From Ricinus communis (taxonomy: Eukaryota > Streptophyta > Magnoliopsida > Malpighiales > Euphorbiaceae), in assembly GCF_019578655.1 (NCBI RefSeq), contig NC_063265.1:2576501-2640500 (forward strand): a DNA stretch of 64,000 bases. The letters are read 5' to 3'. Both the position numbers and the translations under genes were made by a program. Shown piece by piece: positions 2,270 to 64,000 of the stretch. The notes under the pieces are model-generated. The model was given only the letters and a program-made list of their open reading frames with translations. It made no database searches and had not been told where the DNA came from. Positions within the stretch are counted from its first letter, which is position 1. Each line of letters begins with the position of its first letter.

Positions 2270-5200
2270 TATCACGACTCACTCTGTGGACCCGTAACCG
2301 ACATTAGGGAATGGGTAGGCTTAAGGCCACCGAATCCCGTAGTAAGCATGACACTCATTAACTCAATCAAATCTCATCTCAAATTAATATTATTAAAGCC
2401 AAAAATTATCTTAATAGTTACATTTTACATAATTACTTCGGTCTGTTAGAAAAATTAGGCGAGCCCGAAACTCAGAAAATTACCACTGATACCTCTACTA
2501 TTACTACTGCGGAGAATCTAAGATTTTTACAATTTGACATACCAAATCAAACACCACCCGATGATGAAGAAGTCGGGTTACTGAGTAAGAGTCGTGGGAA
2601 GACTAACAATCAAGAATCTGAAAAACAGTAAATGGAGACTGTCAGTCTCAAGAGTGAGTTAAAATCAAATAATCTAAAGACTATTGCAGTCTTCACAGAA
2701 AATATTAGTTATTCGAATCAATATATCAAATCCCGAATATAAACACAAATCATAATATCATCATACCATAATAGAAAAATAAATAAATAAATAAAAATAT
2801 ATTTTTACTTTTATGGGACGAGTGGCTCAGTAGAACCCTAACCCCAAATTCTAGTAGCCTTTTGGCTCTCTTAATCCAATAAGACTAATGCCTAGAGAGC
2901 AATGCTCGACTCGGGACCTTACCTCCAGTCTGGTCATTTAAGTATCCAAATAAGCAAGCGCCCACAAAGCAATGCTCGACCAGGGACCTTTACTCCGGCA
3001 TCTCATTCCAATAGGACCGACGCCTAGAGAGCGAAACTCGACCAAGATCCTTAACTCCAGTTTGGTCACTTAATATTCACTATCTGCCTAAGCCTTTCAG
3101 CTCTCTTATTCCAATAAGACTGGAGCCCAGAGAGCAATGCTCGACCAGGGACCTTACCTCTAGTCTGGTCACTTAAGTATCCAAATAAGCTGGTGCCCAG
3201 AGAGCAATGCTCGACTAGGGACCTTACCTCCGGCAATTTACTCAAATCAGCCCAGAAAGCCATGCTCGACCAGGGCAAAACTCATAATAATCTTATTACC
3301 TGTCCATAATCATTACCGGTGCGCACGCGGTCCTGATGTAACCCATTAGGTGGCATGTTCTACGAAAGCCACATTCCCAAATCGCAATCATCACATTTAA
3401 TAAATATCATTGTCTAATGAAATCATTCAATACATATTGAAATAAAGATTAAAAATTTAAGGTAAAGCAACGTGCAATTCGTGAGGAAAAATAATAACGT
3501 TTGTATTATTATAACATTACTAATAATAATATTTATATTATTTTCAATAATTAATAATCAAGTAAAATCATTTATATTGCGATACTAATAATCATATTAA
3601 GCATAAATTCTAAAATAACATATTAAAATCAGACTTAGCAATAGTGCAATGATTAAATGACTTTAACTCATAGAATTGGGCGACCTCCTAGCTCTGCTCT
3701 GGTGCCTCGATTGGAGCGAGCCGAACAGACAGATCATCTAATCACGGAAAATGATTTATCAAATATGTTGAACAATTTCAATTGACCCTAGGTCTAGATT
3801 TCTATGACTACCTGTCTAAGAATCTCGACTCGGTAAATTCTACCGAAAATTCGGCAGAACCTCCCCTACAACACGAACATTTACCCTCCGTAAAACGAGT
3901 CCAAGACCTGCCAGAAAAACACTTCAAATATCTAACAATCCAAACAACGGGAGTCGAGTCCCCAAACTTCACTATTTTTTCTGACTCCGCTACACAGCAC
4001 AAAACACGAGGCAGGCAAACTAACAGACAATTATTTTTGACTCACAAATATCATCTAAATACTCAACACAATTAATAGGCATACAATTACACCAAGAATT
4101 CTAAAATTAACGGGCTAGAGAAAATTACTGAGACGCTTGATTGCTCGGTCGACTCGCCTCTAGCCGCCGAAGTCCGATCAACGATCTGAACACACCATCG
4201 GACTCGAAATGATGCATTGACAATGATCCTTGCTTCTGATTTTCCGATTTGACACCCGATCATCCAGAGAGATTTTTGGACGATCTTAGCCGTCGATTCG
4301 CAAACGAAGTTCGATCGCCACGAAACCGGTGTCATTGCAAAGCTTGAGCTGAGGAGAGTCGGGATACGTCCTCTGATCGTCCATTCTCCGTCGGAGCTCG
4401 CCAAAAAAATCAAAAAATGCAGCCGCCACCTACTTCGCCGGAACTCCCTCCTTCGGCCACCAAAACCGACGCCGCTACCGCCAAAAGGAAGCTTTCTTGA
4501 AAGTCGGCCGCCCCTTCTTGCCTTCCGCCGACACCGCTGCCACACCAGCCACTCTCAGCGATCTTCTCATCCCCGCACGATTCTCTCTCTCCCCGACACC
4601 TCTCTCTCTCCTTTTCCTTCTTCCCCGATTCCTTTCCTTTCAATACCGGCATTTGACCCCTGAACGTTTCCTTATTACAATTTGGTCCCTCAACTTTCTT
4701 AATTACTTACAATTTCATCATGCAGAATTTCCAATTAACCCTTAAACTTTTCTTTAGCCTTTCAATTAAGCCCCTAGCTAATTAATTTAGGCCAAATTAG
4801 AATTATTGAAAATACACAATTACATAAATACCCCTGCCGACATATTTATTTATAAAAATACCAAACATCCAAATTTCCATTAAAACCCCATATTGATGAA
4901 ATTACACTTTTAAATCCTCATCCAAAAATAAATTTTCTATTTAGTATTAACACAATTAATTTAAATAATCAATTTGCTAAATATTTTTCAACTTAAAATT
5001 TAATACCACTAATTAATTAAAATATCTATTTTTTCTAAATTCCTTTTATAAAAACACCCTTTACAATTTCTCCATAATTTTTCAATATATAATTTTATTT
5101 ATATAAATATGCATTTGGAGAAAATTTAAAAATATAATTATTTCTCAATTAATTTACTTAATTAATTTCTTAAAAATTCAAACTAATAGGATATAGAAAG

Positions 5201-5339
5201 AATGACTCCTTTATTAGTCTAATATTAAAATTCAAAATTTGCATTTGAATTATTCCAACTAAACCAAGTAAAAATTAAATTAAATTAATTTTAAATGAAA
5301 ATACTCATTATTAAATATATAAAAATTCTGGATATTACA
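2270..5339 (+). mobile_element. Solo LTR of a long-LTR Ty3/gypsy-type element
   Basis: The left end reads TATCACGACTC (apparently a mutated TGTCACGAC) and the right end reads GGATATTACA. The element is flanked by a perfect 5-bp duplication, TTAAC, at 2265-2269 and 5340-5344. Length is 3070 bp with no gag or pol sequence, so it is a solo LTR left by unequal recombination rather than a full element. Long LTRs that begin TGTCACGACC are known in chromoviruses such as Del/Tekay; that lineage is an inference. The GC-rich part at 4090-4670 has short open frames on both strands, but none looks like a real gene. Confidence 0.85.
2885..3280 (+). repeat. Tandem repeat array inside the solo LTR
   Basis: About six degenerate units of 57-100 bp each carry the core AGAGAGCAATGCTCGAC followed by GGGACCTTACCTCC and, in most, TCTGGTCACTTAAGTATCC. 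Cores start near 2895, 2957, 3027, 3127, 3195 and 3251. It is probably an amplified U3 segment; no coding potential is seen. Confidence 0.8.
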
Positions 5340-5388: not shown

Positions 5389-7850
5389 TGATAATCGATT
5401 CTTTTAAATTGGTAAAATTAGTTTGTTATAATAAAGAAAAAACATATGTATACATTTTAATTATTTAACTTATAAAATATAACAGGTTAAGTACAAAAAT
5501 ACTACAATACTTCTAGAATTAGAATCCAAAAAGAATAGCATGTAACTAAATTTTCAATATTAAGTATATATTTAATCTAATATTAATATAATAAGTAAAT
5601 AATTAAAATAACATACTAAATAGTAATAATAATAAATAAAAAGGATATTATATGAAGGAAATAATATGCACGATTTTTAATAGGTCATTAAAAGTAGAAA
5701 GAACAAGTATGTTGAGATAATACAATAAAGGTCTAATTTCTAATTAAATCATGAACTTTACACATAATTTTATCTAATTGTTTTAAAATTTTAAAATAAA
5801 TATTTATACTTCCAATTTAATTTCAACAACACTTTTCAATAATAATTTTTAAAATTTTACAATGAGTCAATTTAGCTTACTAACATTAAAATTAGTAAGT
5901 ATTATATTTAAATGTAAAATATGTTATGTTTATATTTATATTTATATATCAAGATTATTATTACAAATTAAGAAAAAAATTGTAGTAGCATGTAAAGTGT
6001 ATTTATATATGGCATTAAGTTATTATTTTAATAAAATGTAAGCATGTTTATTTTATCTTAATAAAATATGTATATTGTAAGAGTTTTATGTATTAATATA
6101 TTTTTATTAATATATAATATAAGTTATACATAGCATATAGGATCTTCAATTTAACGATTCTATCATTAGATTATTAATAATAATTTCAAATTAATTAATA
6201 TATTGTAAACATAAAAGTCTTATAAAATATAAATAGTAATTTTGATAATCTTTTGCTACATTTCAAAAATCTTGAAAGTAAATTATCAAGTTTCAATTTA
6301 ATTATATTTATCGTAAATGTATTTTAAATATCTAAATTTAAATAAAATCTTAGAATTAACATGTTTAATTTTATAACTTTCTAAAGTAGAGAAATATAGT
6401 TCATACTATAAAGTGCTTTCTATATTTTACTTTATTAAAATAAAATAAAATTATCAGGATATAATTTCTTTATTGAATAGATATTATAGTATTTATAAAT
6501 CTTGAATTTTTAACAATATATGTTAAATTTATTTACTATTAGTTATAAAAGTAATGAGCACAAATTTTATAAGTTATAAATAGGTTAACTATTAGATGAA
6601 GTTACTATAATAAATAAATTCTTTTTCAATATTTTAATGCTAAAAATATTTATGATGTTAAATTTTTATATATATATATATATAAAATATAATTTTATTT
6701 TTAATGATAATGAGTCAAGAAATTAATATTCACATGCTAAGCACCTAAATAAAAAACTAGTTTATATAAATTGCTAAATAAGAAAGAAAAAACATGTTAG
6801 AAAACTGCTTTCATATAAATATAGATTTTATCTATTAATTAAAGATAAAGTTAAATAATTTTTCTTATAAATAAAGTTAAATGATTTTTTAAATGAAAAA
6901 TCATGAATTTTGTGTCTAATATTAGATAGACTCATATGTGAGCTTTAATAAACTGAGAAATAAAAAGAATACACTGCTGATAATATTAGAAAATGTTAAT
7001 ATTCTTTTCTCTACATTTTTAAGACTTTGTTTAAATCATTTTGAAATATGATTTTATCTTTTAAAATTTTCTTTCCAATTAATGATAATATTAATAAAAT
7101 TTATCTTAATTCTAGAAAAAATTTATTTGACTTTTATACATTATAATATATATAAAAAAAAACCACAGTAATTTCCATATAGTGATATTCTATATATAAA
7201 AATAATATCTATATAATGATAAATAATTATGATTTCAATTTGGGTCAGTTATTAATAGGAATAACTATCATAATAAGTTATAAATTTTTTTAAAAACAAT
7301 GTTCCTCTATATAATAATATTTTTATATTTAAATTTAAAAATATGTAAAATAACTACATAGTAACTTTTATATAGTAATATTTTATATAGAAATAATTTT
7401 TATGTAATAATAAAAAATTATGATTTCAATTTGAATCGGTTATAAATAGATATAAACTCTTTATTGTAATTCGTCATAAATATTTTAAATCTTACTTAAA
7501 AAATTCTTTTATATACTAATATTCATATATATAAATTTAAAAAAAATATTATATTATATTTTATCTTACTATAATATCATTTTATCTCATCTATTTTATT
7601 TATATGATAGAAAAATATTAACATATTTTATTTTTAATTTATATTATATTATTTTAAAATTAAATATTAAATTTTAAAAAATAATTTAATTTATAAATAT
7701 CTATTAAATTATTCTTTATAATTATAAATTTTATTTAATTTTAAATACATATTTTACGAAAAATTATAATATTTCAAATTAAAGTCGAGTTTTTAAAAAT
7801 TAATATAACTTCACGTAACCAAACAAAAACAATGAAATGCTTGAAATCGT
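5345..7850. repeat. AT-rich intergenic DNA with microsatellites and a 185-bp direct duplication
   Basis: No gene is supported. An (AAT)n tract lies at 5350-5385 and a (TA)n tract near 6670. A block at about 7167-7300 containing ATTATGATTTCAATTTG is repeated at about 7351-7490, and a diverged third copy lies near 25378-25505. The shared words include TTCCTCTATATA and AGTTATAAATA, so this is a dispersed repeat family. Confidence 0.55.
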
Positions 7851-8059
7851 ATAGGCTCGTTTTGGCTCCCAGCAGCAATAAGTGGCTAGATTACTGACTG
7901 CCACCGTATGGCCGAACCAATGGTGGAAGCGGAGAGGATTTTACTGATAGTGTGAAACGGAGAAGCCATTACAAAAGAAAAGAACCCATCCTTTTATTTA
8001 TTTTCTGTTGGAATCCTAATCAACCACAGGATGGCTGGTTGAATTAATATATCCTCGTT

Positions 8060-8160
8060 GACGTCGCCTCATGCCACGTGCTCCCTCTTCTCTCTTATTT
8101 ATTTATTTTTTCTTTTTCTGTAATATGTCTGCGAGTATTTATATATATATATATATATCA
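8060..8160 (+). promoter_or_regulatory. Proximal promoter of the LEC1-like gene
   Basis: A TGACGTC element (8060-8066) and a CCACGTG G-box (8074-8080) lie about 210-230 bases upstream of the start codon. A TATA-like run, TATTTATATATATA, follows at about 8136-8158. CACGTG and TGACGTC are bZIP/bHLH sites that are common in seed and ABA-regulated promoters. The role here is inferred from position; the transcription start is not mapped. Confidence 0.5.
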
Positions 8161-8288
8161 GCAGACTATAGAAATGTGTACACTTGCTCTCTACTTATTA
8201 TTTTCAGCATCTTCACACCCTTCCTTCCTTCTTGATTGATCAGTTTTCACTTCTGAGCCCAAAGAGGAAGAAAGAGAAAGAGAAGAAG

Positions 8289-12557
<4,269 letters not shown>

Positions 12558-37474: not shown

Positions 37475-38056
37475 CTACCTCTTGAACCCAGCAAGAACAG
37501 GATAGATGTTGTCGAAGGCAGCAAAGGCCTCATCCGTCTTCTTGGCTCCTGTAATCACAACTTTTCCTGAAACAAAGATAAGCATTATAATCCGCGACTC
37601 TTTCATGCGATAAATGAGGCCTGGAAACACGTCAGGTTCGTATCTAGAAAAAGCAGCATGCTTGGTGTATATAAACTTCTCAAGTCGAAGAGGGAATTTC
37701 ATGTCACAAGAGGCGACAATATTCTGAATCTTGAAATCTTTAAACTTGGCAGGAAAACCCAACTTCTGCACGATTCTTGCGAACTTTCTCATTGCTAATT
37801 TTGAGTCTTCTTCCGTTTTAGCACCAGTACAGACCACCCTGCCGGAGGCGAAGATCAGCGCTGTGGTTTGAGGATGTCTGATTCGCATAGTCACAGCGGA
37901 GAATCGCTTGGGGTCGTATTCAGAATTGAGAGAGTGAAGTGCTATGCGCTTGAGGTCGAGTTTGCAGTCCAAGTTCACTGTTGATGCGATGTTTTGAAGC
38001 ACTGGTTTAGGCGTCATAGTTTGTGAAGAAGAATGCGAAGTTGAGGTGCTGTTCAT
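37475..38056 (-). CDS. TBP-like: Intronless, diverged TATA-binding protein (TBP) gene
   Basis: An uninterrupted minus-strand frame encodes 193 residues. After a Ser/Thr-rich leader of about 16 residues come the two TBP saddle repeats: repeat 1 begins near [16 protein letters not shown] and contains [12 protein letters not shown]; repeat 2 begins [20 protein letters not shown] and contains [15 protein letters not shown] binds the TATA box in the nucleus and nucleates TFIID, and also serves Pol I and III. The four DNA-intercalating phenylalanines (in KRF, ALIF, AAF and LIF contexts) are present. It differs from typical plant TBP at many normally invariant sites (for example [19 protein letters not shown] replaced by LNSEYD) and ends early, FKR. 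Plant TBP genes have many introns, so the lack of introns suggests a retrocopy. An open frame with conserved key residues suggests it has been under selection. Confidence 0.9.
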
Positions 38057-57568: not shown

Positions 57569-57640
57569 TGTGACGACCCAATCTAAGGAATGGGTAGGCT
57601 TAAGACCACCAAAATTCATAATAAGTCTAATTAATCGATA
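57569..57640 (+). repeat. Truncated LTR terminus of the TGTSACGACC family
   Basis: Starts TGTGACGACCC and continues GGAATGGGTAGGCTTAAGACCACC, matching the first 60 bases of the solo LTR at 2270. It breaks off at the (TA)n tract that borders the viral insertion. Confidence 0.7.
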
Positions 57641-57650
57641 ATTATATATG

Positions 57651-57692
<42 letters not shown>

Positions 57693-57693
57693 A
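57640..57693. repeat. (TA)n microsatellite at the viral insertion border
   Basis: About 50 bases of alternating TA with two interspersed TATG units lie between the broken LTR and the first viral base. Endogenous florendoviruses are reported to sit preferentially next to TA dinucleotide repeats. Confidence 0.85.
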
Positions 57694-58540
57694 TGACATT
57701 TTCAATCCTTATTCAAAGTTTTGCATTGTCTACATTGATGATGTGTTGATATTTTCAAATTCTCTAGAACAACATGGAGACATTTTTCTATGTTGTTAAG
57801 AAAAATGGTTTAGTGGTTTCAAAATCCAAGATATCTTTATTCCAAACAAAAATTAGATTTCTTGGTCACTATATCTCCCGGGGAACTATCACCCCAATTG
57901 AAAGGTCTCTAGCCTTTACTTCAAAGTTTCCAGACAAAATTTTGGAAAAAAACACAATTACAAAGATTCCTTGGCAGTTTAAATTATGTAATGGATTTTT
58001 ATCTAAATTTGAACTGTCTTGCAAAGCCTCTTCATGATAGGTTAAAGAAAAACCCCCCTGTATGGACCGATGAGCATACGAAGATTGTCCAAAACATAAA
58101 AAAATAAGTTTCTGAAATACCATGTTTACACCTAGCTGATCCATCTGCATTCAAAATTGTTGAAACTGATGCATCAAATCTAGGATATGGTGGGATTCTT
58201 AAGCAAGTCCAAAATAACAAAGAATGTATTGTCCAGTTTACTTCTGCACACTGGAATGATACACAGAAAAACTATTCAACTATCAAAAAAGAAATTCTTT
58301 CGATAGTTTTGTGCATTTTAAAATTTCAAAGCGATCTTTTAAACCAAAATTTTTTTTTTAAGGATTGATTGTAAATCTGCTAAAGAAGTTTTACAAAAAG
58401 ATGTCCAAAACATAGCTTCAAAACAAATTTTTGCCAGATGGTAAGCCATTCTTTCTGTTTTTGACTTTGAAATCGAATACATAAGAGGAGATTCAAATTC
58501 AATTCCAGACTTTCTAACCAGAGAGTTTCTTCAAAAATAG
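57694..58540 (+). pseudogene. Endogenous caulimovirid: reverse transcriptase (part) and RNase H
   Basis: The frame begins inside the reverse transcriptase just before the YIDDVLIFSN active site (about 57733), continues through the thumb with LGHYIS (near 57866), and ends in RNase H with ETDASN (58164), KKEI (58290) and IDCKSA (58364), ending ...FLTREFLQK and a TAG at 58538-58540. RT and RNase H replicate the genome from pregenomic RNA. An internal short deletion near 57775 and shifts near 57950 and the T-run at 58349 break it. Sequence 5' of this point in the polyprotein is missing here. Relationship: reads as Caulimoviridae, closest in layout to Florendovirus. Confidence 0.88.
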
Positions 58541-58548
58541 GAGTGAAA

Positions 58549-60003
58549 ATGCCAAGAAAATTAAAAGCAAAAGAAGAAAAGTCGACAGCAAGTTCAAAGC
58601 CTGTCCATAGTCCAAAGAAGGAAATTTTGCCTTCCTCTTCAAAGCCCATCAGAACCTGGACCGAAATCATCCAGGAAGAAATTGACCAAAGCAAGGCCGA
58701 TCCGGCCCAACAACAATTGCAAATTCAGGAGTGGCTTACACAATAAGATCCTGAATTCCTGAAAAGGGTCGAAGAATATTCAAAGCAAGTGATACAACTT
58801 CAACCCGAAGCCTCTCCAAAGTCATCCTCCTCCTCCAACAAGGGTAAAGGTATACTTTCTATCCCTTTTTCAAAACCTGAGATAGAAATTTTTCCTCAAA
58901 ACCTATCTCAAAGCTCTAAAAGTATTTCAAAGCCCAACTCTCAAGAAATAGTTTTGTCACAAACAAAACTTTTTAAATCCAACGAATATATAGAAAAGCA
59001 AAATTTTTAAAACATTTTGACTATTGAGGAAGGATTCTGTACAGAAAGCCCCTCAAAACTGATTTCAAAGATTTTCCCTCCAGGATGGTATTTCAAGCCC
59101 TGAAATATTTCAAAGCCTCAATCCTACTACCAGTCTATCCTTGAGGTAACTAGTTCTGCAAAGTTCAAACACTTCAAAAAATACAAAGACCATATAGACC
59201 CCGCATATTCCACATGCACCATACAAAGAATCCTCCACCCTACAGATTGGGGAATGGATTTACACTCTTCAAGATCTTTCCCAACTTCCCTCCAAAGAAC
59301 CTACCCATCAAGCCTAAACACTTCTTTCAACTATTGGGATTACCAAAAAGCTTGGTTTAATACCTTTCTTCTTCAAAACAAAGGACAAAGCCATTATTGG
59401 CTTTTCTACTTCGATACAAGCTCAATCCAAACTTCAAAGATCCCCTATTGGTTTAAACAATGGTGGAATTTTTATGGCAATGTTCCTGAGACCATAATTC
59501 CAGAAGTTCTACCTCTGTTCAACCTTTTCAAAGCCCACTATAAACTAAACAAAATAGAAAGATGTTTTCCCCCATTATTTCTATTTTGTTCAAACTTCTT
59601 TCTTCCTTGGGTATGTGTATGGTATTTCCATTTCAATCAAGCAGCAGATGGAGAAATCATTCTTACCCGAAGGTTCAAAGTCAAATGGTGGGATAAATTT
59701 AACCACCAAGAAAAATTATCACTAAAGTTGGTACAAAATATCCTTTCAAAAAATAGCTTCTTGCCACCTCCGAAAGAACAGACCACTTTCTTGGCACAGA
59801 AGTCCTTCATAATTCCAAAGCTAGCGGCTGCTCAGACAGAAGAAGATTTCTTACAGTTGATCAAACAATTGTTGGAAACCGCCTCTTCCAAAGGAAAATC
59901 AAAAGCTTCATCTTCCTCTTCTAGCACCAGCTCGGCAGCAATAGACCTAGATGGTGACTCAAACGAAGATGACTGTTTTGGGATATTCAAGCCCATCAAA
60001 TAA
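58549..60003 (+). pseudogene. Endogenous caulimovirid ORF2, function unknown
   Basis: This ORF starts eight bases after the polyprotein stop and spans 484 codons in a single frame, broken by three in-frame stops (TAA about 58744, TAA about 59008, TGA about 59101) and no shift. The N-terminal third is Lys/Ser/Pro-rich and disordered-looking; the central part (about 59254-59720) is rich in Trp, Phe and Tyr and probably folded; the C-terminal tail is a Ser run followed by an acidic patch near 59930-59990. A downstream ORF of unknown function after the polyprotein is a known trait of Florendovirus. I recognise no conserved domain. The 249-codon 3' part remains open. Confidence 0.75.
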
Positions 60004-60600
60004 TACCTCTGTAAAGCCCTTGGGTTGAAAACCAGAAATGGCAGCCCGAGATATTTATGTAATGGGCCAAAAGCCCAATGTAAAAAAAAAGAGTCATTAA
60101 AAAGAAAAAAGAAAGAAGACAAAAGACTCTTTAAAAAAGCAAAAGATTTTTTTTCAAAGCATGGCCGACAACTTCCACAAAAGGAGTGAAACATCTTACT
60201 CCATTGTCACAAGACTACAAGAAGAAGTGGAGCCCCCTTTATTCCACTAAGAAGAGCATCCAAAGCTTCAAGGCCTCTATAAATAGAGGAGTTTCCCTTA
60301 GAAGAAGGCAAACTGAAAAATACGAAGAACCTCTTGTATTCTTCAAGTCACACAAAGAGAAATATAGTGAGAAAAGAGAGAGTACAGTGTGAGAGTGGTA
60401 GTGAGAAGAAACACTTTCCTCTTATATTCAATTTCTCCTCTTTTAAGTTATATTTCTTTAGTTTAAAGCTTTCATTTTAAAGCTTTTTTCAAAGTTTGTA
60501 TATTTGTTCAAAGTTTGTGTTCAAAGTTTGTACCTATCAATAAAATTTTTATCTTCTTATCTACAATCTTTTAGATTTAACAAGTGTATGCTCTGTGCTT
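60004..60600 (+). promoter_or_regulatory. Viral intergenic region: promoter, leader and poly(A) signal
   Basis: TATAAATA lies at 60278-60285 in the context CCTCTATAAATAGAGGA. AATAAA is at 60539-60544, about 255 bases downstream. In plant pararetroviruses the poly(A) signal lies downstream of the transcription start, in the terminal redundancy of the pregenomic RNA, so this spacing fits. Three tandem-like TTCAAAGTTTGT units lie at 60488-60531. No initiator tRNA-Met primer site was found before the junction near 60600, where RT sequence starts. Confidence 0.75.
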
Positions 60601-61177
60601 ACCTCATCTGAGGATCCTGCATACCAGAAACTTGTTGATATGAAATCAGGATTTTGGCAAATCCAGATTCATCCAAAAGACAGGTACAAAACAGCTTTTA
60701 CAATTCCATTTGGCCAATACGAATGGAATGTAATGCCCTTCGGATTGAAAAATGCTCCTTCTGAATTTCAAAAAATCATGAATGACATTTTCAATCCTTA
60801 TTCAAAGTTTTGCATTGTCTATATTGATGATGTTGATATTTTCAAATTCTCTAGAGCAACATTTCAAACACTTGGAGACATTTTTCTATGTTGTTAAGAA
60901 AAATGGTTTAGTAGTTTCAAAATCCAAGATATCTTTATTTCAAACAAAAATTAGATTTCTTGGACACTATATCTCCTAGGGAACTATCACCCCAATTGAA
61001 AGGTCTTTAGCATTTACTTTAAAGTTTCCAGATAAAATTTTGGAAAAAACACAATTACAAAGATGCCTTGGTAGTTTAAATTATGTTATGGATTTTTATC
61101 CAAATTTGAACTGTCTTGCAAAGCCCCTTCATGAAAGGTTAAAGAAAAACCCCCCCTCCATGGACTGATGAGCATAC
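60600..61177 (+). pseudogene. Second copy of caulimovirid reverse transcriptase fragment
   Basis: The region starts at the palm domain (VDMKSGFWQIQIHPKD near 60624), passes MPFGLKNAPSEFQ and an active site where a two-base loss in the YIDDV segment shifts the frame, and overlaps about 400 bases of 57694-58075 at high identity. It retains the 11 bases lost from the first copy near 57775, so the two copies carry different lesions. It ends abruptly at about 61177, where minus-strand protease sequence begins. Confidence 0.85.
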
Positions 61178-62343
61178 ATTCAAACCCATATCTTGTTTCA
61201 AGTGGAAAAGCTGGGTTTGTTTTCCTTTGATCAAAGCATTTATCTCAAAATTATAAATTGAGTGGGCTTTAATAAGATTGAGATTTCTCTTTTTAGGTTT
61301 TTCTATAAAAGGGAAAACAATCTTTGAATCTTTAGCTTTAAAAATAATACCAGCAGTAGTTACTTTGAAAGGAGTAATTACATTGATAAAGGGAGTTTCT
61401 AAAATAACTGTTTGCTGAAGATTTTTTGTAAGAATAAAAATATTTTTTAAAGCAATATTATTATTTAGAATTGCAGCTTCAGTTTTTTCCGCAATCCTAA
61501 TCTTTGAACTATTGGCTGAAGTAAGCCTTTCTTTAGTTTCTTGATGATACCTTTTAGGAACCACCTCATAATTGATACAGTTAAGGTCTGCTCCTATATC
61601 AAATAAAGCGATGGTTTCTATTTGAAAATCACCAGGGAAAATGAGTTTTATTTGAATCAAATATTTCCTTGAGGTAATTTCCTTTAAAACATTAATGAAG
61701 TTTTCTGGAACACTTTCAGAAACCTCAAGATTTTGAAAATCATTTTCTTCTTCAGAATCAGAATCACTATTCTGTTTGAGAATCAGGCTTTGGAGTAAAA
61801 CAGAATCATTTTGTTATTTTTCTTTTAAATCTTTGAGCTCAGTTTTGATTGCTTTGATTTCTTTCTGAAGTTCTTGAACGGTAGGAAGAGGGTTTTTTAA
61901 CTTTTTCCCTTTATCCAAGATCATAGTAAGATCATAAGTGTTCTTACTAGAAGAGGGGACAAGGGTTTCAGTTTTTAAGATTTCTTTCAAAACTTGTTTT
62001 TGGATTTGGGGGTCATTAATATGCTTGACGGCTTCAAGAAGAGCTTCTTGTTGCCTAGTGAGCATATTAATATTCTTTGAAATATTTTCAGAATCTGATT
62101 CAGAATAATCGGATGAGGTTTTGATTTCATCAATTTGAAATTCTTCCTCACTATTCGAAAATTCTGATTCAGAGGAATCAACAAGAAGAGCTGAAATTTT
62201 GCTTAAAACTTCTTCTTCTATTTGGAGCTCATGGAGTTTTTTAGAAAACTTGCAATACTTTGAAGTATGACCCTTTTTGCCAAACTTATAGCAAGTAATT
62301 TTGCTAAAATCTTTTTTAAAATTTTATTTTGGAAATTTAGAAG
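61178..62343 (-). pseudogene. Endogenous caulimovirid: coat-protein zinc knuckle and aspartic protease, inverted
   Basis: On the minus strand a CCHC knuckle (C-x-x-x-x... written as CYKFGKKGHTSKYC, 62294-62253) opens the segment. A Ser/Glu-rich acidic spacer follows, then a predicted coiled coil (about 62065-61814, LTRQQEALLEAV to LKDLKEK), a stop, and the protease (about 61660-61190). Its catalytic loop reads LFDIGADLNCI, where D-T/S-G-A is expected, so Ile replaces the Thr/Ser. The protease normally cuts the polyprotein. The last residues of its frame run into the junction with RT sequence in the opposite orientation. Confidence 0.83.
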
Positions 62344-62822
62344 AGGACAGAACCAGTTACCTCAAGGATAGACTGGTAGTAGGATTGAGGCTTTGAAATA
62401 TTCCAAGGCTTGAAATACCATCCTGGAGGAAAAATCTTTGAAATCAGTTTTGAGGGGCTTTCTGTACAGAATCCTTCCTCAATAGTCAAAATGTTTTGAA
62501 AATTTTGCTTTTCTATATATTCGTTGGATTTAAAAAGTTTTGTTTATGACAAAACTATTTCTTGAGAGTTGGGTTTTAAAATACTTTTAGAGCTCTGAGA
62601 TAGGTTTTGAGGGAAAATTTCTATCTCAGGTTTTGAAAAAGGGATAGAAAGTATACCTTTACCCTTGTTGGAGGAGGAGGATGACTTTGGAAAGGCTTCA
62701 GGCTGAAGTTGTATCATTTGCTTTGAATATTCTTCAACCCTTTTCAAGAATTCAAGATCTTGCTGTGCTAACCATTCCTGAATTTGCAATTGTTGTTGGG
62801 CCGGATCGGCCTTGCTTTGGTC
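62343..62822 (-). pseudogene. Second copy of the ORF2 N-terminal part, inserted between coat-protein segments
   Basis: The minus strand matches ORF2 from about 58682 to 59160 at high identity. It is spliced at DNA level between coat-protein sequence (to the right) and the zinc-knuckle segment (to the left). Its first third is in frame with the coat-protein-like part, yielding one open frame of 382 codons (63692-62544). It carries its own stop near 62544 and shares the later stops of the other copy only in part. Confidence 0.85.
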
Positions 62823-64000
62823 TCCTATGAAGTGGAGGGAAATCGTTAGGATTAGAGTTGACACATCATCCTCAATCGGATTTCCTAGTTCATCTAAGAT
62901 GGGGGTCCCTTCTATTGTGGTTTGAATGGCACCTAGGATTTGGAGCTGTTGTGCTTGTGTGAGATGGTAATCCCACAATCCTTTAAGCTGGCCAGAAAAT
63001 CCAGCTATAAGGAGCTCAGCAATGGCTCTATCAGAGGTACCGCTTTGGGTTTTGTAAGCATTGGCTGCCATGGTCATCTGTTGCAAGAGACCAAGGTTAT
63101 TATATTCTGTCATTCCATCTATATTCCATTTATAGACGGAGGAAGCATTGAATCTAGATTGGGTTAGGATATTATTCCTATTTTCTATTCCTAGATCTAG
63201 GGCAGTATTCCTAGAAGTATGCCAGATCAATCTAGGGGCTTGCCATCCCAGTCTGTTGATGTTGGAGGGTTTTTCAGTGACACTTTCAAGCTCTGAATCA
63301 TTTGATTCATTGCAATGGGCTTGATCTATAGTACTGATATTCCTACTGCTTTGAGGAGTATCTGGCACTAGATTTTTGGAGGACTCAAAAGTTGCTAATT
63401 TGCTAAGCTGTTCTCTGACTGCTCTAGCAAACTCAGTTTGCTTTTGAAATTGATCTTGGCTAGGCTTTGAGATTTGGTAGGGTTTGAAGACTGGATTTTT
63501 GAGCTTTTCCGATTGACTTGTCTCTTTTGGATGTTCAGTGTTGGGGATTGGAGAGGTGAAAACTACAAGAGGTTTTTGGATCTGGCTTTCTATCCTAACA
63601 AGCTGCTTCCCTATTGTGTTAAGATAGGTATTCGAGAAATTGTTCTGCTGAACAATGTTCTTGACATTCTTTTCAAGATCTTCTCCTACCAATTTGTAAG
63701 GTGAAGCCTCTATTTCATTCTCTCCATAAGGAATGGTTATCTTCCTAAGGGGAGGATGTTCAGACTGGATGGTTAGGTTTTCTCCGACCTTCCACTCTGG
63801 AGCCTTGTTTCTTACAGTGACAAGACTAATAAGTTTTTCTTTGAAAGGATAAAGAATACTATTTTCATTGCAATAAATCTGAAACCAATCAAAAAATTTG
63901 ATTTGGACTTTGTTTTGAATGCAAAATTGATAGTACCTTTCTTGAATACTGTCTTTTTCTTGTAAAAAATTCTTAAAAAACTAAAATTTTTTAGAATGGT
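62822..64000 (-). pseudogene. Endogenous caulimovirid: coat-protein-like region, runs off the right edge
   Basis: The minus strand is open from about 63982 to the ORF2 junction at 62822. It holds a Lys/Gln-rich linker, LGWQAPRLIWHTSRN (near 63245), YKWNIDGMTEYN (63133) and AIAELLIAGFSGQLKGLWDY (63030-62971), the pattern I associate with the capsid region of petuvirus/florendovirus-like polyproteins. Sequence upstream of about 63700 is probably the linker after the movement protein. A stop lies at about 63983; the movement protein itself is not in the window. Confidence 0.7.

What the first reader, a model, noticed from the sequence alone, without database searches (positions are those of the whole stretch)
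57640..64000. Mosaic, inverted endogenous florendovirus-like pararetrovirus adjoining a (TA)n tract
At least six viral segments are joined in non-genomic order and opposite orientations (RT/RNase H, ORF2, intergenic region, RT again, then inverted protease, ORF2 piece, coat-protein-like). The left border is a (TA)n repeat that itself truncates an LTR. Junction at 57693 shares short homology (AATGACA) with the viral sequence. This fits microhomology or end-joining repair of several viral molecules at one break, as described for endogenous florendoviruses.
Basis: partly seen in the sequence, partly recalled or inferred. Interest (0 to 1): 0.8.

Follow-up and report, generated by a model that had tools for sequence, protein, structure and literature searches.

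The report
Scrambled fossil plant virus insertion
Broken, shuffled and flipped pieces of an ancient plant virus were stitched into a TA-repeat inside a plant mobile element, an accident of DNA repair of a kind already known, though its junctions show some new detail of how the pieces were joined.

Summary
The finding is real and larger than reported. Window 57692-64000 is the left part of an 11.2 kb block of florendovirus-like DNA that runs 4.9 kb past the window end (to about 68916 in window coordinates). I count 13 segments in mixed orientation. A (TA)n tract lies at both ends. The two host flanks are the two halves of one interspersed repeat; in 8 of 8 fetched paralogues (of 39 listed) both halves lie together with a short TA-rich stretch between. 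So the (TA)n does not truncate an LTR; it is the insertion site.

Junction overlaps are no longer than random blunt joins give, so microhomology is not the evident driver. Details: four break points have both sides kept, one fused join occurs twice in opposite orientation, and divergence within the block is uneven (0.020-0.070). This points to end joining of broken viral molecules with copied filler.

Rearranged, (TA)n-flanked endogenous caulimovirids are well described, so this is a new member of a known kind. A related locus holds 40 stitched viral pieces, 30 of them 100-165 bp, which is stranger than the window.

The parts
57583..57643 (+). left half of an interspersed host repeat (TE/LTR-like, not classified) into which the block is inserted; the right half resumes at about L009:5440 (window 68940)
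   Evidence: 40 scored of 65 candidates: 39 other places match parts of query 96-171; 8 of 8 fetched paralogues hold both halves contiguously
57643..57692 (.). (TA)n tract at the left border; partner tract at L009:5416-5442 (window about 68916-68942)
57692..60639 (+). segment S1: RT (partial) - RNase H - ORF2 - intergenic region, collinear with the virus
   Evidence: Pfam RNase H-like 2.9e-21
58108..58368 (+). RNase H-like open stretch, 86 aa, inside S1
   Evidence: PF17919 2.9e-21, PF17917 1.7e-16
59104..60003 (+). main open stretch of the florendovirus-type ORF2 (299 aa); the part before it is interrupted by stops
   Evidence: 18 homologues, 5 with a host name (Citrus sinensis three times, Hevea brasiliensis, Primulina eburnea); no Pfam family
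60004..60639 (+). intergenic region; ends some 20-30 nt before the place of the tRNA-Met primer site in other copies
60635..61178 (+). segment S2: second RT piece; its ruler continuation is S6 at window 64119-64296 (L009:619-796)
61179..62347 (-). segment S3: aspartic protease region and a zinc-knuckle-like stretch (the latter by eye; Pfam gives it only weakly, in the related S7)
   Evidence: 98.1% like S7 and 97.7% like S11 of the same block where they overlap
62348..62822 (-). segment S4: ORF2 piece, inverted; with 58684-59158 it forms an inverted repeat of 475 nt, K2P 0.051
62819..64000 (-). segment S5: coat-region piece (DUF7588, DUF7746), inverted; continues to window 64118 (L009:618)

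Best explanation
A (TA)n stretch inside a host repeat broke. The break was healed with DNA of a replicating florendovirus-like pararetrovirus: long, already broken pieces of more than one viral molecule were joined end to end in random order and orientation by host end joining, and some joins were bridged by short stretches (37, 46 and about 60 nt) copied from nearby viral templates, as polymerase-theta-type repair does (recalled). Shown: the two-sided insertion into a TA-rich stretch of a repeat, the 13-segment order, lack of excess microhomology, reciprocal breaks, one join present twice. Inferred: a chromosome break as trigger, end joining as route, polymerase theta as copier, one event, at least two viral genotypes. 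I saw no intact gene set; any present effect might come from its long inverted repeats (475, 757 and 845 nt) feeding small RNAs, which is untested here.
For: Both flanks are halves of one repeat, uninserted in 8 of 8 fetched paralogues. (TA)n within 60 nt outward of 15 of 21 viral borders that I listed, against 0.7% of 82,701 host positions. 13 segments, with no gap over 18 nt between them. Junction overlaps as in random blunt joins. Five abutting end pairs at four points against 0.14 expected, none of 20,000 simulations as high. The join between the movement-protein tail and RT occurs twice, once inverted, in the block and in none of the 44 other records held then, at up to 3 changes. Where they overlap, S3-S7, S3-S11 and S5-S7 are 98.1, 97.7 and 96.6% alike, above the best fetched locus of each (95.4-96.2%, over other lengths), while S1 and S4 are nearest to L020. 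At 6 of 21 borders the virus ends at, just before or just inside the tRNA-Met primer site, where pararetroviral DNA is known to have a gap (strand gaps: PMC3759858, passages; junctions at discontinuities in rice: PMC526188, passages).
Against: S2 and S6 are contiguous on the virus and enclose S3-S5, and divergence within the block ranges from 0.020 to 0.070; both also fit two events at different times. The empty site is paralogous, not orthologous. Uniqueness of the junctions rests on the fetched loci and, genome-wide, on one answered search of one junction (only the window covers both sides by more than 7 nt among 40 scored of 1243 candidates).
Confidence: 0.72

Rival explanations
1. Stepwise build-up: a simpler viral insertion came first, and later breaks inside it took up more viral pieces or suffered local inversions (nested insertion and in-place rearrangement).
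For: S2 and S6 abut on the virus and enclose S3-S5; reciprocal breaks at ruler 8226 and 6905/6906 are what inversions can leave. Divergence within the block is uneven (0.020-0.070).
Against: S3 (inside the supposed nested insert) is 98.1% and 97.7% like S7 and S11 (outside it), more than like any of the 20 loci compared, so insert and surroundings share a source.
Confidence: 0.3
2. The mosaic is a defective viral genome that replicated in rearranged form and then integrated.
For: One fused join occurs twice in the block.
Against: No printed match in the 19 other records crosses the 4 in-window junctions; the S1/S2 join was spanned only by the window among 40 scored hits; pieces of unequal divergence are mixed.
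Confidence: 0.06
3. Assembly artefact: reads of many similar copies were wrongly chained.
For: The family is large (743, 1243 and 1710 first-look candidates) and its copies are alike (best 40: 94-97%), which is hard to assemble; no reads are held.
Against: No N in the records fetched; both borders sit in the two halves of one repeat, which random chaining would hardly give.
Confidence: 0.07
4. Retrotransposon or integrase-mediated insertion of a chimera of viral and LTR-element DNA.
For: The site is a TE-like repeat; such routes are named in PMC10377300 (section 12).
Against: Both borders lie in the (TA)n and by eye I saw no target-site duplication other than the tract itself; the viral map leaves no gap over 18 nt for other DNA inside the block. 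No dedicated search for integrase was made.
Confidence: 0.04

Closest known systems
Endogenous florendoviruses (Geering et al. 2014, PMC4241990), e.g. the Ricinus communis virus named there
   Same: MP, coat region with zinc finger, protease, RT, RNase H, then an ORF2 without known homologue; tRNA-Met start; frequent (TA)n flanks; more than 1% of the Ricinus genome
   Different: In the passages and section I read, short gains or losses at the site are reported; I did not see a per-junction analysis of mosaics there
Endogenous rice tungro bacilliform-like sequences (Kunii et al. 2004, PMC526188, passages)
   Same: Rearranged, inverted, duplicated segments, most flanked by AT repeats; ends preferred in the intergenic region and at places of strand discontinuities
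   Different: Another caulimovirid group (tungro-like), in rice
Filler DNA made by polymerase theta in plants, as at T-DNA joins (recalled, no call)
   Same: Short copied inserts between joined ends, mixed orientation
   Different: The excess microhomology often linked to that route is not seen in this block

Membership tests
Caulimoviridae | RT/RNase H nearer to caulimovirid than to Ty3/gypsy enzymes | tested here: met
   Family representative L033:1876-2940: best solved relative 8r0s 'Enzymatic polyprotein' 277.8 bits against Ty3-type 200.8 (that 8r0s is cauliflower mosaic virus and 4ol8 is Ty3 is recalled). The window's own RT piece: 83.5 against 73.4 bits. No tree was made.
Caulimoviridae | viral movement protein and caulimovirus-type coat region | tested here: met
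   In the block beyond the window: PF01107 MP 9.1e-21 and DUF7746 9.1e-32; zinc knuckle 0.0008 and Caulimovir_coat_dom 8.1e-5 are below their cut-offs
Florendovirus | domain order MP-CP-zinc finger-AP-RT-RH, followed by ORF2 | tested here: met
   Order on ruler locus L022/L033, by mapping the block's annotated pieces onto it. Two open stretches of L033 itself in the MP part gave no MP match. The window block holds the parts scrambled.
Florendovirus | ORF2 protein of the florendovirus type, without homologues outside the genus | tested here: inconclusive
   18 homologues, 5 with a host name, all plants; no relative confirmed in IMG/VR; no Pfam. No reference florendovirus ORF2 was at hand.
Florendovirus | tRNA-Met primer site after the intergenic region | tested here: met
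   TGGTATCAGAGC in 6 of 26 records scanned; directly after the intergenic region in L012, L015 (one change), L023, L024, L026
Florendovirus | RT inside the florendovirus clade of a tree with named genera | not tested
   No genus-labelled RT set was fetched; the 120 listed hits (of 1081) carry host names or none

The most novel reading that the evidence does not exclude
Viral minichromosomes were cut up in the nucleus and the pieces stitched into plant chromosomes. In a sister locus (G000:C6:27276469-27281814, L032/L042) 40 pieces, all viral, 18 in one and 22 in the other orientation, lie end to end; 30 of 40 are 100-165 bp, none lies between 160 and 240, and the spread (CV 0.40) is far from random breakage (0 of 20,000 simulations). 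That is about the length of DNA on one nucleosome. On average the pieces are nearer to the long viral segment on their own right side than to any other one record, though the flanking segments hold the top copy for only 11 of 34. The window block would be a milder case of the same process, with breaks whose two sides were both kept.
Probability: 0.25. Interest if true: 0.75.

Novelty: new member of a known kind. Interest (0 to 1): 0.42.

Why it matters
How pararetroviral DNA, which codes no integrase, enters plant chromosomes is called speculative in a 2023 review (PMC10377300, section 12). This genome offers many copies with readable junctions: (TA)n sites with paralogous empty copies, viral ends at the primer site, copied filler, and one locus of nucleosome-sized pieces. 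Together they make competing models (end joining, microhomology joining, template switching, recombination of older copies) countable.

Tried and rejected
Excess microhomology: tested and not found in the block. A small excess appears in the C6 patchwork (41 junctions, p 0.012), while the 32 junctions kept from other loci (those of L014, L015, L032, of wide gaps and of the natural circle join were dropped) show less overlap than random joins (15 of 32 with filler).

A shared defective genome: disfavoured, but only one of the block's 12 internal junctions was answered genome-wide; the searches for in-window junctions S2/S3, S3/S4 and S4/S5 and for the fused join stayed unanswered, and the rest were not sent.

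Reciprocal breaks in the C6 patchwork: none beyond chance (1 against 1.4 expected). So the two loci differ, which speaks against one single process. The C6 locus also shows no (TA)n at either border.

Short internal pieces of other loci show no clear nucleosome-size peak (for example 42, 52, 153, 112, 35, 195 in L016), so the size peak rests on one locus.

Virus relatives in IMG/VR by ORF2: none confirmed. Literature searches with pararetrovirus or endogenous viral element plus discontinuity, nucleosome or polymerase theta terms showed, in titles and abstracts of what was listed (12 of 26), no report of nucleosome-sized viral patchworks; the library holds open-licence PMC papers only. Valli et al. 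2023 on rearranged copies and 22-nt RNAs was not found in the library; I know it only through passages of PMC10377300.

Papers seen: PMC4241990 (outline with abstract, section 9, passages), PMC10377300 (section 12, passages), PMC526188 (passages), PMC3759858 (passages); others as listings only.
Full report
WHERE IT IS. The window is G000:C10:2576501-2640500 of a 315.5 Mb plant genome in 140 contigs. An NF-YB (LEC1-like) protein of the window has its nearest named relatives in Hevea, Mercurialis, Jatropha and Euphorbia, so the family is Euphorbiaceae. Nine contigs whose length I saw measure 26.6-36.7 Mb and C9 has at least 24.2 Mb. Ricinus communis is reported to hold more than 1% florendovirus DNA (PMC4241990, section 9). 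I take the host to be castor bean (inference; its ten chromosomes are recalled).

WHAT IS THERE. The virus-like DNA starts at 57692 and ends near window 68916, that is L009:5416. Measured on a ruler locus (L022, continued by L033; virus sense runs downward), the block has 13 segments: S1 57692-60639 (+, 6876 to 3901), S2 60635-61178 (+, 7022 to 6477), S3 61179-62347 (-, 7469 to 8637), S4 62348-62822 (-, 5400 to 5874), S5 62819-64118 (-, 9138 to 10436), S6 64119-64296 (+, 6478 to 6301), S7 64300-65541 (-, 8226 to 9467), S8 65538-66616 (+, 11717 to 10599), S9 66608-66644 (+, 6905 to 6869), S10 66648-66693 (+, 11763 to 11718, 87% alike), S11 66686-68005 (+, 8226 to 6906), S12 67996-68041 (-, 6860 to 6905), S13 68060-68916 (-, 4390 to 5232). 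The total is about 11.2 kb against about 7.9 kb for one ruler unit, with many stretches present twice, so more than one viral molecule contributed (arithmetic).

IDENTITY. In the window: RVT_1, RNase H-like, RVP (weak), DUF7746 and DUF7588. In the rest of the block: movement protein PF01107, DUF7746, RVP, and weak zinc-knuckle and caulimovirus coat matches. The RT/RNase H of the family is closer to the solved pararetroviral enzyme 8r0s than to Ty3 (277.8 against 200.8 bits). ORF2 has 18 relatives, of which 5 bear a host name, in Citrus, Hevea and Primulina. The order of parts on the ruler and the tRNA-Met primer site after the intergenic region match the florendovirus description in PMC4241990 (passages). 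A genus-labelled RT tree was not made, and no reference florendovirus was compared directly.

SITE. A (TA)n tract borders both ends. The left flank (57583-57643) and the right flank (L009:5440 onward) both align to each of 8 fetched paralogues (L034-L041, chosen from the 39 other places listed), where the halves are contiguous with only a short TA-rich stretch between (BLAST for 8, printed alignment for 6). This is a paralogous empty site. Across the loci fetched, (TA)n lies within 60 nt outward of 15 of 21 viral borders that I listed by hand from the maps, against 0.7% of 82,701 host positions near these loci; the six misses are L011, L017, L024, L025 and both borders of the C6 locus. The loci were chosen as best ORF2 matches, so the fraction is not a genome-wide estimate.

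VIRAL ENDS. In L010, L013, L018, L019, L022 and L031 the virus runs up to, or just into, the primer site and passes into (TA)n, in L019 and L031 as ...CTATCTTGGTA followed by TATATA; L025 is a doubtful seventh. Genome-wide the pattern of this border occurs 6 times exactly, 6 more times with one change and 53 times in all with up to two, against 39 for the reversed control at up to two; only the exact and one-change hits stand out. The loci are centred on ORF2, close to this viral end, which favours seeing it. Strand gaps are known for pararetroviral DNA (PMC3759858, passages), and junctions at discontinuities were reported for rice (PMC526188, passages). The window block does not have such an end at its own borders; its S10 begins at the primer site.

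JUNCTIONS. Overlaps (negative means filler) are 5, 0, 0, 4, 0, -3, 4, 9, -3, 8, 10, -18; 1486 simulated blunt joins have mean 2.1 and median 1; p 0.41. Segment ends abut at four points of the virus (6477/6478, 6905/6906, 8226, 11717/11718), five pairs against 0.14 expected and none of 20,000 simulations as high; without the three shortest segments two pairs remain (p 0.004). One join, between the tail of the movement-protein region and RT, occurs at L009:3103 (+) and L009:4516 (-) and in none of the 44 other records held then, at up to 3 changes. It was probably made once and copied, which fits templated filler.

SOURCES AND AGE. Where they overlap, S3-S7, S3-S11 and S5-S7 are 98.1, 97.7 and 96.6% alike, more than each is like any of the 20 loci and two C6 flanks compared; S1 and S4 are nearest to L020 (95.5 and 96.6%); S1 and S13 are 92% alike; S2, S6, S8 and S13 are nearest to other loci. 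Pairwise K2P within the block: 0.020, 0.023, 0.034, 0.045, 0.048, 0.051, 0.054, 0.070. If all entered together, at least two viral genotypes took part. If S3 and S7 entered together, the smallest value caps the age at about 0.8-1.4 million years at recalled plant rates of 1.3e-8 to 0.7e-8 per site and year.

HOW COMMON. By my reading, 13 of 18 distinct places (20 records) show out-of-order or inverted viral joins within the 9.9 kb fetched; 5 (L017, L018, L019, L020, L025) do not. Mosaics are common here.

THE STRANGER RELATIVE. At C6:27276469-27281814 two long viral segments are separated by 40 pieces, mean 137 bp, 30 of 40 between 100 and 165 bp, all viral, 18 and 22 in the two orientations. 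A genome-wide search with 523 bases of it, four pieces, found no other place that spans more than one piece among 40 scored of 1710 candidates; two pieces are well represented in that list, with best identities elsewhere of 99 and 98%, one has a single 92% hit and one has none. Of 30 pieces of 90 bp or more, none matched any of 33 other records at 100% (best 99.3%, mean 96.2%; control pieces 97.2%, 1 of 135 at 100%), which argues against a collage of reads from those copies. One junction of 34 tested was bridged, weakly (82.9%), by another locus. The pieces are on average nearest to the right-hand long segment of the same locus (mean advantage 2.36 points, next record 1.15); the flanking segments hold the top copy for 11 of 34 pieces. 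The size matches nucleosomal DNA, and caulimovirid DNA is packed in nucleosomes (PMC3759858, passages), but it also matches common short-read lengths, so reads must be checked first.

VERDICT.

Noticed in passing
L032:5470-9901 and L042:1-914 (G000:C6:27276469-27281814): Patchwork of 40 viral pieces, 30 of them 100-165 bp, in mixed order and orientation between two long viral segments; no (TA)n seen at the borders of the locus.
   Followed up: partly
window 62544-63980 (-): A 478-codon open stretch runs across the join of the coat-region piece and the inverted ORF2 piece, so two unrelated viral parts are fused in frame.
   Followed up: no
window 58684-59158 with 62348-62822; 61179-61936 with L009:3186-3942; 59326-60171 with L009:4560-5416: Three long inverted repeats (475, 757 and 845 aligned sites; K2P 0.051, 0.023, 0.070) that could fold into hairpin RNA if transcribed.
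   Followed up: partly
L022:3848-3877 and L033:2964-3019: The ruler locus too lies between two (TA)n tracts and contains an inverted RT piece next to the primer site.
   Followed up: partly
L014/L015/L016, G000:C4:8811000-8830200: Cluster of viral copies in both orientations with a run of short pieces (42, 52, 153, 112, 35, 195 bp).
   Followed up: partly
window 37475-38056 (-): Intronless intact open stretch of 193 codons that looks like TATA-binding protein (my reading of the sequence, no search); perhaps a retrocopy.
   Followed up: no
window 11958-12557 (+): Intronless NF-YB (LEC1-like) open stretch; nearest named relatives in Euphorbiaceae.
   Followed up: partly
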